DNA from: Nitrososphaerales archaeon | Lineage (GTDB): Archaea; Thermoproteota; Nitrososphaeria; Nitrososphaerales; UBA183 | Length of the DNA: 8,890 nucleotides | Direction: 5' to 3' | Assembly (NCBI GenBank): GCA_030042335.1 | Contig: JASHZW010000148.1 | Span: 1-8,890, forward strand | Part shown: positions 2,370 through 8,318 of the stretch, one piece after another | Layout of the letters: each line of letters begins with the position of its first letter | Position numbering within the stretch: position 1 is the first letter of the stretch | The notes under the pieces: model-generated | What the model was told of the DNA's origin: nothing | The model's input: the letters and a program-made list of their open reading frames with translations, nothing else | Databases searched by the model: none | Position numbers and translations under genes: made by a program

Positions 2370-2465
2370 GGGCCCGTAAGTTAGTATGGATAGACTGCCG
2401 GCCTTCGGACCGTCCGAAGGGAAGAAAGCCGGATGTCGCGGGTTCAAATCCTGCCGGGCCCGCCA
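2370..2465 (+). tRNA. tRNA-Arg (anticodon TCG) with intron and encoded CCA
   Basis: The gene folds into a complete cloverleaf. The acceptor is GGGCCCG (2370-2376) with CGGGCCC (2455-2461), 7/7 Watson-Crick. T8/A9 follow, then D stem AGTT/GACT (2379-2382/2393-2396) with A14, G18G19 and A20 (an arginine identity base) in its loop. The anticodon stem is CCGGC/GCCGG (2398-2402/2428-2432), the variable region has 5 nt, and the T stem GCGGG/CCTGC flanks the loop TTCAAAT (2443-2449). The spliced anticodon loop reads C-T-TCG-G-A, anticodon at 2405-2407, decoding CGA. The discriminator is G2462 and CCA is encoded at 2463-2465. An 18-nt intron interrupts the gene after position 37. A near-copy of its last 22 nt occurs at 8543-8564. 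Confidence 0.95.
2409..2426 (+). other. Intron of tRNA-Arg (canonical 37/38 site, bulge-helix-bulge)
   Basis: The 18-nt insertion separates position 37 (G2408) from position 38 (A2427). CTTC (2403-2406) pairs with GAAG (2421-2424) as the 4-bp central helix. The 3-nt bulges GGA (2407-2409) and AAA (2425-2427) place both cleavages after the second bulge base, as the archaeal splicing endonuclease requires. The outer helix is short (CC/GG). A competing register exists in which CCTTCGGA (2402-2409) pairs perfectly with TCCGAAGG (2413-2420). Confidence 0.88.
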
Positions 2466-4994: not shown

Positions 4995-5711
4995 TCAGAG
5001 TTCTCTCAACATTTCGGTTAGCAGCCTCCATTCAGCCTTTCTTATATGCGCCGAGAATGTCGACTTCACTAGGTTGAGCCTTTCCGCCAATTCCTCGGCG
5101 GTTACCTTTCGGGGAACGTCGTAATATCCCAATCTGTACGCCGTGATTAGAACCCGCCGCTGCTTTTCCGTCAGGCGTCCCACCGGCGAGTTGGGCGGGA
5201 ACTTCGCGTCCCCCAGCGAGGTCACCCTGTATCTGATTCGTGATTGTTTCGAGAGACGAGCGAGGACCGCAAGGAGTCGCCTTATCTGCGACGAGCTACC
5301 AAGGTAAGCTACTCGAAGTTTACCATTCCTATATTCGAAGGGAGTGGCGACGTATGGTATCGAACTTCTTTGCTCGATCCGGCGAAGGTAGGGTCGCGCG
5401 CTCGACTTCATGAGATACGTAGATGTGGTGTCGGATTCTTTGTCCAGAAGTTCCATCTCGAATTTGGAACCCTGTATTCCCTCCGTGGGGAAGATCTCCT
5501 CGATTTTGAACCTTGGGTCCTTGACCTCGACTCTGGCCACAGCAGCAAACTCCCCTGGAACCATTTTGAGGACGTAAAGCGTCTCGAGCGACTCGACCTT
5601 CTCCAGCAGGTTGGTCAGGTGAGGTGGTATCGCCTGGCCCCTGTCCTTAAGTTGTTCCAGCGGGAGTTCGAGGACGAGTCTGCGCAACGTGCGACCAGCA
5701 CCCTTGTCCAC
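4995..5711 (-). CDS. Transcriptional regulator with C-terminal bacterio-opsin-activator (HTH_10) domain
   Basis: DNA-binding regulator of the archaeal Bat-like class, about 238 residues from the chosen start. The C-terminal LTEKQRRVLITAYRLGYYDVPR block, followed by TAEELAERLNLVKSTFSAHIRKAE, is the characteristic HTH_10 domain in the last 60 residues. The N-terminal part, beginning RRLVLELP with KVESLETLYVL and GEFAAVARVEVKDP, matches the uncharacterised ligand/regulatory region seen in single-domain archaeal members. An ATG at 5777 would extend the protein by 22 residues, but it falls inside the shared promoter repeat and adds an unfamily-like charged tail. GTG at 5711 (or TTG 5714 / 5684) is preferred, helped by an A-rich TATA-like patch near 5740. 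It is divergent from the SnoaL-like gene across the operator-like repeat, so autoregulation and control of its neighbours are likely. Confidence 0.8.
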   Translation of the reverse strand: MDKGAGRTLRRLVLELPLEQLKDRGQAIPPHLTNLLEKVESLETLYVLKMVPGEFAAVARVEVKDPRFKIEEIFPTEGIQGSKFEMELLDKESDTTSTYLMKSSARPYLRRIEQRSSIPYVATPFEYRNGKLRVAYLGSSSQIRRLLAVLARLSKQSRIRYRVTSLGDAKFPPNSPVGRLTEKQRRVLITAYRLGYYDVPRKVTAEELAERLNLVKSTFSAHIRKAEWRLLTEMLREL

Positions 5712-5751
5712 CAAGATGTGCTTTTCTCCGTAACGGTGTTTTTCTGCGTTA

Positions 5752-5783
5752 TGGCGAACTTGTTCGCCTACACACATATTAGC
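5752..5783 (+). promoter_or_regulatory. Shared operator-promoter block, copy A (upstream of SnoaL-like gene)
   Basis: A perfect 6-bp inverted repeat, GCGAAC-TT-GTTCGC (5754-5767), is followed by CTACACACATATTAGC. The ACATATTA at 5773-5780 is a TATA-like box about 25-28 bp before ATG 5805, so the downstream mRNA is probably leaderless. The block matches copy B (7001-7032) at 29 of 32 positions while the flanks differ. A palindrome just upstream of TATA fits an activator site in archaea. It sits between the divergent regulator and SnoaL-like genes. Confidence 0.8.
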
Positions 5784-5804
5784 CGGACAACCTTCTCTCC
5801 CTGT

Positions 5805-6227
5805 ATGTCTGCCGGATCGCTGTCCGTTGATAGAATGAAAGAGACAGCGAGAAAGTATCTGGAGATTGTCGATTCGGGACGATATGACGAGCTACTCCCG
5901 ATTGTCTCAGAAAAAGTGGTGTATCAGACGATTGGTCCACCCATTGTGGGAGCTTCCAAGCTGATCCAGTACTACAAAGCGACAAGAGTGGCAGGATACG
6001 GATCTCATGAGGTGACAGGCATTATTGCTGAGGCAAACAAGGCTGCCGTTTTGTTGCGAATGAAGGCAAACATGAAAGACGGGAGCAAGAAAGAGTTTGA
6101 AGCAGTAGACCTTTTCACATTTGAGGGAGACCGGATCATTGGAGTCCGAACCTTCACCGACTTCCCGCCCGCCATATCATTCGAAGCTTTCTCCTCTTCC
6201 CGTTCTTCCCATTCGTCTTCTAGCTGA
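5805..6227 (+). CDS. SnoaL/NTF2-like fold protein (nuclear transport factor 2 family)
   Basis: A 140-residue protein. Residues 11-122 have the layout of SnoaL/NTF2-like proteins: an amphipathic helix KETARKYLEIVDSGRYDELLPIVSEKVVYQT, a loop IGPPIVGASKLIQYY, then alternating strands ending EAVDLFTFEGDRIIGVRTFTD. The fold hosts small-molecule isomerases, cyclases and dehydratases (for example ketosteroid isomerase, polyketide cyclase) as well as ligand-binding proteins; the reaction here cannot be read. ATG 5805 is chosen because the TATA-like box at 5773-5780 places the transcript start next to it; ATG 5835 is the alternative. The reading frame continues open upstream to 5244, but that part is antisense to the regulator gene and not real. 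The C-terminus is a serine-rich tail (126-140) after the fold should have ended, lying where the gene overlaps the opposing membrane-protein gene. Confidence 0.78.
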   Translation: MSAGSLSVDRMKETARKYLEIVDSGRYDELLPIVSEKVVYQTIGPPIVGASKLIQYYKATRVAGYGSHEVTGIIAEANKAAVLLRMKANMKDGSKKEFEAVDLFTFEGDRIIGVRTFTDFPPAISFEAFSSSRSSHSSSS

Positions 6228-6967
6228 ACACAACTTCGGAATTCTTCATCGGTCTCACCAATATCTCGGCGACTTGCGTCAACCGAAATGAGCCCATCGG
6301 AACCGTTCCGATGATCCGACAAACAGGACATTTGGAATTGGTCGATGATTTCGGGTGTCGAACGTATGCCAATGCCACCTATGCCCGGCTTTAGCTTCTT
6401 GCGTAAGAGCGGTGCCACGAGAATGACGCTTATCAGCACCATGTACGACGGGAAAGCGACTGAAGGGAGGTTCCATGAAGTCACCGCGGTGAACGCGGAG
6501 AGTCCGCTCACAATTCCTCCTAGGTACGCGGCGACTGACTCGGTCTCTGGGTTGCGCCATTCCTTGACGATGGTCGGTGCCGCGCCGAGCCCGCTGGTCG
6601 TGATAGACAAAACTATCGCAATCGATGGGTCCGAGGTGATGGCCCAGAGCGCCAGCGCCAGAAAGGCACATGCACCACACGCATAGTCTAGGGTGTGAAG
6701 CTTCCAGTATGCCTTTGCGTTCGCGAAGGAGGCGATGAGGACGAGGAGCGGCCCGAAACCAGCCATGAACGTCGGCAGCGCCGCCCATCTCACCCCTGAC
6801 TCCCATGATGCGGCGAATGCGGTGAGCGGGGCAACACACCAAACGAGCCACGAGACCCTGTCGGGCTCCGTGCCTCCGAACAGAGTATCGCTCAGATACA
6901 CGAGGGTGCCGGCGAAGCCTATGAGCGAACCTATCACGACTATCACCGGGAACACGGCGTCACACAT
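6005..6967 (-). CDS. PQ-loop/SemiSWEET-like integral membrane protein with long C-terminal extension
   Basis: Residues 1-190 form about seven hydrophobic segments arranged as two similar halves. Each has a PQ-loop-like signature: TEPDRVSWLVW at 33-43 in the first and APTIVKEWRNPETES at 129-143 in the second. This resembles bacterial and archaeal uncharacterised PQ-loop-related (SWEET/MtN3 clan) proteins, suggesting facilitated movement of a small solute, unproven. Such proteins usually stop soon after the last membrane helix. Here about 130 further residues follow (191-320), and residues from about 247 are antisense to the SnoaL-like gene, overlapping it by 223 bp. The extension is probably read-through after loss of the old stop and may not be functional. 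ATG 6967 follows a GATATA box (6993-6988) by about 23 bp, so it is likely leaderless. The gene is divergent from the hydrolase gene around operator copy B. Confidence 0.65.
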   Translation of the reverse strand: MCDAVFPVIVVIGSLIGFAGTLVYLSDTLFGGTEPDRVSWLVWCVAPLTAFAASWESGVRWAALPTFMAGFGPLLVLIASFANAKAYWKLHTLDYACGACAFLALALWAITSDPSIAIVLSITTSGLGAAPTIVKEWRNPETESVAAYLGGIVSGLSAFTAVTSWNLPSVAFPSYMVLISVILVAPLLRKKLKPGIGGIGIRSTPEIIDQFQMSCLSDHRNGSDGLISVDASRRDIGETDEEFRSCVQLEDEWEEREEEKASNDMAGGKSVKVRTPMIRSPSNVKRSTASNSFLLPSFMFAFIRNKTAALFASAIMPVTS

Positions 6968-6987
6968 CGGTTGATGCCCAGCTAGCG

Positions 6988-6993
6988 TATATC
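6988..6993 (-). promoter_or_regulatory. TATA-like box of the PQ-loop membrane protein gene
   Basis: GATATA on the minus strand is centred about 23-24 bp before ATG 6967, consistent with a leaderless transcript. It lies 11 bp from operator copy B, so one protein bound there could act on both divergent promoters. Confidence 0.5.
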
Positions 6994-7000
6994 AGCATCC

Positions 7001-7032
7001 TGACGAACATGTTCGCCTACACACGTATTAGC
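7001..7032 (+). promoter_or_regulatory. Shared operator-promoter block, copy B (upstream of alpha/beta hydrolase gene)
   Basis: A perfect 12-bp palindrome, CGAACATGTTCG (7004-7015), is followed by CCTACACACGTATTAGC. From 7004 to 7032 it matches copy A at 27 of 29 positions. ACGTATTA (7023-7030) is the TATA-like box, predicting a start near 7052, about 12 nt before the hydrolase ATG. Palindrome-to-TATA distance is the same in both copies. The two palindrome-centre changes (T/A at the centre) keep the symmetry. Confidence 0.8.
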
Positions 7033-7064: not shown

Positions 7065-8318
7065 ATGAGCGAGAAAATCGAGAAGAAGGAAGAAAAACAG
7101 GAGCTAGTATTTCGCCTTACGGCGGGCCAGGCGAATAGGTTTGGGAGTAACTTCGATTCTTACTTCACGAGAGTGATGGGGAGGGGCAACTACGGCGGGT
7201 CGGCGGTGGGGGAATGTTACGAAACGGCCAGCCGGATTGTCGATGGAGATTTCCAAAGCTTCACCAATGCGTGGGAGGTGACCGCGAAGCGGGTCGAGGC
7301 GATTGGGTGGGACTGTCTCAAAAAGGGGCATCGGGTGAGCGCTCGCGATGCATTCTTGCGCGCCACGACCTACTGGGGAGCCAGGAACATGTACGCCAAC
7401 CCTGCGGATCCGAGCTATAACGCATCGTACGAGAAAGAGAGAGGGTGCTTCCGCCAGGCCGCTAAACTCTTCGACCCACAACTCGAACTCGTGAGCATCC
7501 CCTACGAAAATGGCAGGACGATGCCGGGTTACTTCGTTCCCGGCGGTCCTCCAGGTGAGAAGAGACCGACGGTTCTTGTGCTCGGCGGAGGCGATAGCGC
7601 GCTCGAGGAACTCTATGGTGTGGTCCCGGCGGGCGCGCAGAGAAGGGGTTACAATGCGCTCATGTTCGAGATCCCGGGACAAAAGGCGATGTTCTATGAC
7701 TACCCAGACCTGTTCTTCCGTCCTGATGCTGAAGTTCCGATTCGCTATGTCCTGGATTACGTCCTCGGCCGTCCCGAGGTCGATAAAGACAGAGTCGCCT
7801 TGATCGGCGCCAGTTTCGGTGGCTATTTCGGTCCAAGGGCTGCTGCTTTCGAGAAGCGTTTGGCAGCGGTGATAGCACTCCCGCTTTTTACAGATATTCA
7901 GGAGATGTTCATCGAACTACTGGGCTTTGACCCGACAAAGCCGTATCCGCGCGATCTGGAGTCACGCCTCGACACGTCTCAATCTTTCATCAGGCTGGCC
8001 GCTACCTCCGACTTTCGAGCCCGGTGTGGATACGCCAACGCCCCAATAGCGGAGTGGCTGGACGCCTTGCATGCGTTTAGGTTGAATGGGCTTGAACAGG
8101 ACATAACTTGTCCACTGCTCATTCTTGCAGGCGAGAGCGAGTTCAGTCCCACGAGAATGGAAACGGAAAAGATTCAATGGAAGAAGTTCATGAACCATCC
8201 TAAGAGCCAGATAAGGATCGGAACGACCGCTGAGGGCGGCGAGGGGCACAGCATGGTCAACAACCTGCTCTTGAAGAACCAAATAGAGATGGATTGGCTC
8301 GATGACGTGCTCGGATGA
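7065..8318 (+). CDS. Alpha/beta hydrolase, FrsA / 2,6-dihydropseudooxynicotine hydrolase-like
   Basis: A 417-residue hydrolase. Residues 20-140 form the helical N-terminal region typical of this family, with GDFQSFTNAWEVTAKRVE, the GHRVSARDAFLRATTYW block and CFRQAAKLFDP. The alpha/beta core follows, with PGYFVPG, the oxyanion-side LVLGGGDSALEE, and the nucleophile elbow GASFGG carrying Ser250. The catalytic His395 is in GGEGHSMVNN. The acid position is in LAGESEFSP, with Glu where an aspartate is usual. Relatives include C-C bond hydrolases acting on 2,6-dihydropseudooxynicotine and various esterases/acyl hydrolases, so hydrolysis of a ketone, ester or amide is expected, substrate unknown. 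ATG 7065 is chosen for the AGGGA ribosome site 6 nt upstream; the in-frame TTG at 7050 coincides with the predicted transcript start. It shares its promoter block with the SnoaL-like gene. Confidence 0.85.
   Translation: MSEKIEKKEEKQELVFRLTAGQANRFGSNFDSYFTRVMGRGNYGGSAVGECYETASRIVDGDFQSFTNAWEVTAKRVEAIGWDCLKKGHRVSARDAFLRATTYWGARNMYANPADPSYNASYEKERGCFRQAAKLFDPQLELVSIPYENGRTMPGYFVPGGPPGEKRPTVLVLGGGDSALEELYGVVPAGAQRRGYNALMFEIPGQKAMFYDYPDLFFRPDAEVPIRYVLDYVLGRPEVDKDRVALIGASFGGYFGPRAAAFEKRLAAVIALPLFTDIQEMFIELLGFDPTKPYPRDLESRLDTSQSFIRLAATSDFRARCGYANAPIAEWLDALHAFRLNGLEQDITCPLLILAGESEFSPTRMETEKIQWKKFMNHPKSQIRIGTTAEGGEGHSMVNNLLLKNQIEMDWLDDVLG

What the first reader, a model, noticed from the sequence alone, without database searches (positions are those of the whole stretch)
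5752..7032. Duplicated operator-plus-TATA block defines a mini-regulon next to a Bat-type regulator
Two 32-bp blocks 1.25 kb apart agree at 29 positions while their flanks do not. Each is a perfect inverted repeat (GCGAAC-TT-GTTCGC and CGAAC-AT-GTTCG) followed at the same distance by a TATA-like box and a rightward gene (SnoaL-like, alpha/beta hydrolase). Both sit in divergent gaps, the other partners being the regulator and the PQ-loop membrane protein. The central difference (TT versus AT) leaves the palindrome arms unchanged, as expected for selection on a dimer site. The inference is that the adjacent HTH_10 regulator binds both, activating from just upstream of TATA and controlling four genes. 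Site and target sequence for such a regulator are seldom this explicit.
Basis: partly seen in the sequence, partly recalled or inferred. Interest (0 to 1): 0.7.

Follow-up and report, generated by a model that had tools for sequence, protein, structure and literature searches.

The report
Shared switch beside archaeal gene regulator
Two near-identical mirror-symmetric DNA sites lie between pairs of outward-facing genes beside an archaeal regulator, and a distant relative keeps both in the same places, so they are very probably the regulator's landing sites; this is a clear example of a known kind of gene control, not a new kind.

Summary
In detail: blocks 5752-5783 and 7001-7032 match at 29 of 32 positions, and the pattern never appears in shuffled DNA. 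The operator reading is largely supported. A distant genome (L001) keeps all four genes (63-82% identical) and both sites; each site is the best-conserved 25 nt of the aligned stretch. In L002 the regulator's relative faces an MFS transporter instead, yet keeps the palindrome, so the site follows the regulator. In five related genomes the composite (up to 3 mismatches) occurs once, at the L001 locus, so it is no dispersed repeat there. Both dyads sit 42-56 nt from all four starts. More widely, 28 of 29 regulators examined (window included) have a divergent neighbour, often an exporter, and kin pairs share a near-palindrome; two of three automated tests of that wider claim failed. Gene content and G+C suggest transfer of the cassette between archaeal lineages. 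Not shown: binding, activation versus repression, transcript starts, signal, or the host's own regulon (genome not held). 'Bat-type' fits the DNA-binding domain only. A well-documented new member of a known kind: a local archaeal regulator with a palindromic box upstream of TATA.

The parts
5753..5768 (.). Operator copy 1: dyad GGCGAAC-TT-GTTCGCC, centre 5760/5761, in the regulator/SnoaL gap
   Evidence: conserved in L001 and L002
5777..5781 (+). TATA-like TATTA of the SnoaL gene, 16.5-20.5 nt from the dyad centre, 28 nt before ATG 5805
   Evidence: read; TATCA at the same place in L001; function inferred
7002..7017 (.). Operator copy 2: dyad with perfect 12-mer CGAACATGTTCG (7004-7015), centre 7009/7010, in the membrane-protein/hydrolase gap
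   Evidence: GCGAATATGTTCGC in L001
7026..7030 (+). TATA-like TATTA of the hydrolase gene
   Evidence: read; CGTATCAA in L001; function inferred
4995..5714 (-). HTH_10 regulator; likely start TTG 5714 (GTG 5711 also possible); the 5777 start of the longest ORF would place the operator inside the gene
   Evidence: start matches L001 TTG 8061, both 46.5 nt from the dyad centre
5805..6227 (+). SnoaL-like protein (PF12680)
   Evidence: 66% identical in L001 with aligned ATG
6281..6967 (-).
   Evidence: no Pfam match; 69% identical in L001; relatives
7065..8318 (+). FrsA-like alpha/beta hydrolase; ATG 7065 matches the L001 start, TTG 7050 is an alternative
   Evidence: 82% identical in L001

Best explanation
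The two blocks are operators of the adjacent HTH_10 regulator. A regulator dimer most likely binds the GCGAAC-NN-GTTCGC dyad midway between two divergent core promoters and acts on both: copy 1 controls the regulator and the SnoaL-like gene, copy 2 the membrane protein and the hydrolase. The dyad lies just upstream of the rightward TATA-like boxes and does not cover them, so ligand-dependent activation by helping TBP/TFB bind weak promoters is more likely than repression. The four genes with both sites form a small self-contained cassette that appears to have moved between archaeal lineages. Shown: sequence, palindromes, conservation, spacing, synteny. Inferred: binding, dimerisation, activation, ligand sensing by the N-terminal domain, and substrate handling or export by the target genes.
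For: Both sites and all four genes are kept in L001; identities SnoaL 66%, membrane protein 69%, hydrolase 82%, regulator 63%. Best 25-nt match 23 and 19, against means of 14.2 and 13.5 over the aligned stretches. Dyad-to-start distances, computed: regulator 46.5 and 46.5 nt (window, L001), SnoaL 44.5 and 46.5, membrane protein 42.5 and 42.5, hydrolase 55.5 and 58.5. L002's relative (58%) faces an MFS transporter but keeps GGCGAACATGTTCGC; dyad identity to the window is 14 of 16 against 18 of 60 in the flanks. TGTAGCGMACMTGTTCGC, a pattern drawn from L002, L003 and L005, has 4 exact places in five genomes, all beside such regulators (G002 C61, G003 C21 and C57, G004 C18); the hits at L002, L003 and L005 follow from how the pattern was made, what counts is that no unrelated exact place exists. 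28 of 29 regulators examined, window included, have a divergent ORF. Published precedent: XylR of S. acidocaldarius and the Ara-box AACATGTT (PMC7264815); block 2 contains AACATGTT.
Against: No binding or expression data. The host genome is not held. Only one genome with the full cassette could be read as DNA. The TATA-like boxes are weak, and the regulator-side promoter in the window has no clear TATA. Per-sequence palindrome tests across the wider family were significant in only 5 of 44 (the window itself p=0.11, L001 p=0.64, L002 p=0.003), and the best-conserved 16-mer of kin pairs is usually not the dyad. The bare 12-mer is enriched genome-wide in G001 (23 against 2 for the reversed control) and G003 (13 against 2), so it alone is not specific to this locus.
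Confidence: 0.77

Rival explanations
1. Same operator and regulator, but the protein represses both divergent promoters until a ligand releases it, as TetR or MarR local regulators of exporters do.
For: Relatives are often divergent from exporters (MFS, MMPL, ABC: 12 of the 20 partners checked), the usual layout of local repressors (recalled); in L016 the dyad lies only 12 nt from the regulator start.
Against: Dyads here do not cover the TATA-like boxes or starts; Bat and DmsR, regulators with this type of HTH in a paper seen here, are activators (PMC1447603 passages).
Confidence: 0.33
2. The dyads are bound by a different regulator encoded elsewhere, and the adjacent HTH_10 gene is only one of its targets.
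For: G001-G004 have 4 to 12 HTH_10 matches each.
Against: The palindrome stays beside this regulator while the partner gene changes (L001 against L002); no exact half-composite away from such regulators in five genomes.
Confidence: 0.12
3. The blocks are a dispersed repeat or the ends of a mobile element, with no regulatory role.
For: 29 of 32 identity with weaker flanks; the cassette looks transferred.
Against: Same orientation, near-equal distance to four start codons, one composite hit in five relative genomes at up to 3 mismatches; none of the three Pfam-recognised cassette proteins is a transposase.
Confidence: 0.03
4. The dyads act as RNA hairpins (terminator or leader structure) and not as protein sites.
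For: Inverted repeats of 5-7 bp read.
Against: They lie upstream of TATA-like boxes and so outside likely transcripts; a loop of two bases is too tight for a stable RNA hairpin (general knowledge; no fold was computed).
Confidence: 0.03

Closest known systems
XylR (Saci_2116) and the Ara-box of Sulfolobales (PMC7264815: passages and Discussion read)
   Same: Activator with an HTH domain; palindromic promoter element needed for induction; core AACATGTT equals 7006-7013 of block 2
   Different: Sugar regulon; block 1 has AACTTGTT. Whether XylR belongs to HTH_10 was not tested (recalled only; one search lists S. acidocaldarius among genomes with an HTH_10 match, not which gene)
Bat and the bop UAS of Halobacterium (PMC1447603: passages read)
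   Same: Activator with a C-terminal HTH (that it is the HTH_10 type is recalled); regulatory site UAS 5' of several co-regulated genes, with an atypical promoter element at bop
   Different: Bat carries GAF and PAS domains; here only HTH_10 is recognised. The UAS letters were not seen in any call, so site sequences were not compared
HTH_10 regulators divergent from MFS, MMPL or ABC exporters in MAGs labelled Nitrososphaerales, Bathyarchaeota and Thermoplasmata
   Same: Same protein family, divergent gene, near-palindrome 43-60 nt before the start in 22 of the 23 rows aligned by eye
   Different: Window and L001 carry SnoaL in place of the exporter plus a second operator serving a hydrolase and a membrane protein

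Membership tests
HTH_10 (PF04967) regulators | C-terminal HTH_10 domain above the curated cut-off | tested here: met
   74.4 bits against 23.1, E 6e-21
Bat (bacterio-opsin activator) proper | GAF and PAS sensor domains before the HTH | tested here: not met
   No such Pfam or NCBIfam match; domains of Bat from PMC1447603
Bat/UAS-like arrangement | Site upstream of a TATA-like box at several genes | tested here: met
   Two sites, TATTA 16.5-20.5 nt from each dyad centre; co-regulation and activation not tested
Ara-box promoters (XylR) | Palindrome AACATGTT | tested here: inconclusive
   Present in block 2 and L002; block 1 and L001 site 1 read AACTTGTT, L001 site 2 AATATGTT
Autoregulated local operator | Site conserved upstream of orthologous regulators | tested here: met
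   L001, L002; near-palindromes elsewhere are by-eye placements with mixed statistics
Autoregulated local operator | Regulator binds the site and alters transcription | not testable with these tools
   needs bench work
Dispersed repeat | Many copies at unrelated loci | tested here: not met
   1 hit in 5 relative genomes at up to 3 mismatches; own genome not held

The most novel reading that the evidence does not exclude
A large class of archaeal one-component HTH_10 regulators each carries its own readable operator: a clade-specific dyad at a near-fixed place between its start and the divergent gene's TATA-like GGATTA (TAATCC) element, changing together with the recognition helix. The window shows such a unit that gained a second operator and new target genes and then moved across archaeal lineages as a cassette. 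If true, DNA specificity of dozens of uncharacterised regulators could be read from sequence.
Probability: 0.45. Interest if true: 0.55.

Novelty: new member of a known kind. Interest (0 to 1): 0.42.

Why it matters
The paper searches made here (open-licence library only, not exhaustive) listed no paper whose title or abstract start describes an operator for an HTH_10 regulator of this clade. This locus gives a protein, two natural copies of its likely site, four likely targets and conserved relatives, which makes a direct binding test easy. It also suggests transfer of a regulator together with its operators as one unit.

Tried and rejected
Own genome: not held, so no regulon scan in the host. 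Dispersed repeat: rejected for five relatives. The bare 12-mer CGAACNNGTTCG is enriched in G001 (23 against 2 for the reversed control) and G003 (13 against 2) but not in G002 (4, 3), G004 (4, 2) or G005 (0, 8). All 23 G001 copies were looked at: each falls within some long stop-free frame, which says little in a G+C-rich genome, and three pairs are tandem; they were not counted as targets, and the G003 copies were not examined.

Family-wide palindrome claim: three tests. Per-sequence shuffles gave p<0.05 in 5 of 44. The position test put the highest mean best palindrome 38-52 nt upstream (5.35 of 8 against a median of 4.41, sd 0.34 over 47 overlapping windows, 34 representatives; in that script the start offsets of L001 and L002 were 1 and 3 nt off). 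The unbiased best-16-mer test did not favour dyads: both copies at least 6 of 8 in 1.7% of 229 pairs, against 4.9% of single 16-mers; by eye the conserved stretch often takes in the GGATTA element and the left arm. Kin-pair identities (dyad 13-16 of 16, flanks 15-56 of 60, 11 pairs chosen by me) use dyads placed by eye in 23 of the 44 rows; the other 21 were left out and the register had no shuffle test. One search covered 29 of the 49 non-redundant rows (170 bits or more, L004 excluded as cut off); 20 of its 28 partners were checked by Pfam.

Cassette elsewhere: hydrolase P0087 was found in 0 of 300 genomes of the order of G002 and 1 of 103 of the family of G001, G001 itself. A third contig (23,753 bp) probably holds the regulator (P0002), hydrolase (P0087) and part of the membrane protein (P0326), judged only from equal contig lengths. 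PADLOC gave one weak match over the HTH only. Fold search: the only match below E 0.001 is Ta1207 (5m86, TM 0.37, weak), and the HTH resembles sigma region 4 (3vfz, TMt 0.71), so the ligand stays unknown.

Full report
OBSERVATION. Blocks 5752-5783 and 7001-7032 match at 29 of 32 positions; their common pattern is found only at these two places in the window and never in 200 shuffles. Block 1 is GGCGAAC-TT-GTTCGCC; block 2 contains the perfect palindrome CGAACATGTTCG. Each is followed by CTACACACRTATTAGC. Block 1 lies between the HTH_10 regulator (-) and a SnoaL-like gene (+); block 2 between a small membrane protein (-) and a FrsA-like hydrolase (+). The longest regulator ORF (to 5777) would contain the operator; many orthologues start near the RRL motif and the likely start is TTG 5714.

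CONSERVATION. A protein search listed 86 regulator proteins, the query included. L001 (63% identity, a MAG labelled Thermoplasmata) keeps all four genes in the same order and orientations and both sites: CGAACTTGTTCGCCTACAGACGTATCAG and GCGAATATGTTCGCCGATGTGCGTATCAA. In window/L001 alignments that span each gap and a little coding sequence, the block is the best 25-nt stretch, 23 and 19 matches, against means of 14.2 and 13.5. SnoaL is 66%, the membrane protein 69% and the hydrolase 82% identical. L002 (58%, Nitrososphaerales) has an MFS transporter as divergent partner and still carries GGCGAACATGTTCGC in the gap. The site therefore travels with the regulator and not with one target.

SPACING. 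From the dyad centres lie 46.5 nt (regulator), 44.5 (SnoaL), 42.5 (membrane protein) and 55.5 (hydrolase ATG) from the starts; in L001 46.5, 46.5, 42.5 and 58.5. TATTA lies 16.5-20.5 nt from each dyad centre on the rightward side. One dimer between two core promoters is the simplest reading.

NOT A REPEAT. The composite with up to 3 mismatches occurs once in five related genomes, at the L001 locus itself; the hydrolase-side copy of L001 differs by 4 and is not counted. A shorter half-composite, TGTAGCGMACMTGTTCGC, drawn from L002, L003 and L005, occurs exactly at four places, all beside relatives of this regulator (G002 C61, G003 C21 and C57, G004 C18); with up to 3 mismatches, counts are near the reversed control except for forward hits in G003 (10 against 2). 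The bare 12-mer is common in G001 and G003 (23 and 13 against 2 each), so the flanking promoter part is needed for specificity.

WIDER FAMILY. 28 of 29 regulators examined, window included, have a divergent ORF, chosen as a long ORF starting within 400 nt. Of 20 divergent partners checked by Pfam, window and L001 included, 8 are MFS, 1 MMPL, 3 ABC, 6 enzyme-like or SnoaL, 2 without a match. Near-palindromes with clade-specific letters appear at a similar place; in 11 chosen kin pairs the 16-nt dyad is 13-16 of 16 identical, against 15-56 of 60 in the flanks (dyads placed by eye in 23 of 44 rows). Automated tests were mixed: 5 of 44 individually significant, a positional peak 38-52 nt upstream, and no preference for dyads among the best-conserved 16-mers. 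The wider statement is therefore a lead; the clade with window, L001 and L002 is solid.

ORIGIN. The window's MtnA is 75% identical to G003 (Gagatemarchaeum, by the L003 title) and 49% to G001; the acyl-CoA ligase is at best 38% (G001). The cassette is 63-82% identical to G001. In L001 the cassette is 60.1% G+C between flanks of 64.9 and 66.3%; 18 other G001 pieces, fetched because they hold the 12-mer, are 60.1-70.2%, one of them (L119) as low as the cassette. The simplest reading is horizontal transfer of regulator, targets and both operators as a unit, into G001 at least; mis-binning of that contig is less likely because its flanks match the rest of the MAG in G+C, but it is not excluded.

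MECHANISM. Bat and DmsR are activators with a similar C-terminal HTH in Halobacterium (PMC1447603, passages; that this is the HTH_10 type is recalled). XylR and the Ara-box AACATGTT show a palindrome-dependent activator in Sulfolobus (PMC7264815, passages and Discussion); block 2 contains the same eight letters. That XylR belongs to HTH_10 is recalled and untested. The predicted model (mean pLDDT 80.9, pTM 0.61) has a beta-rich N-terminal domain without a convincing solved relative and a C-terminal HTH like sigma region 4. I put activation at about two to one over repression, because the dyads lie upstream of the TATA-like boxes; this is judgement, not a result.

VERDICT. Ordinary in kind, unusually clear in evidence, with two extras: a second operator copy that recruits two more genes, and signs of transfer as a cassette.

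Noticed in passing
L111 (G001 C73), L113 (G001 C77), L041 (G001 C10): Pairs of CGAACNNGTTCG palindromes starting 17-19 bp apart, in two cases close to another HTH_10 gene (C73, C77); G001 holds 23 such 12-mers against 2 of the reversed control. Possibly operators of another regulator.
   Followed up: partly
window 6005-6227: The membrane-protein ORF runs on antisense across the last 223 nt of the SnoaL gene; in L001 it stops before reaching SnoaL.
   Followed up: no
L001 5453-8780: Four-gene cassette lower in G+C (60.1%) than its flanks (64.9 and 66.3%), suggesting transfer into this Thermoplasmata MAG.
   Followed up: partly
L003, L002, L005-L010, L012, L013, L016, L056, L062, L065, L070, L072: GGATTA-like element at a near-fixed distance left of the by-eye dyad in these 16 of 23 rows even where dyad letters differ; probably the divergent gene's TATA box read on the other strand.
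   Followed up: partly
window 2370-2465: tRNA gene of 96 nt (probably with an intron) whose anticodon the program left open.
   Followed up: no
L014, L015, L076, L077: HTH_10 regulators divergent from an epimerase/NmrA-like gene (Pfam checked for L014 and L076) share CTAGCGGATATGCTCGCTAG while other gap sequence diverges.
   Followed up: partly
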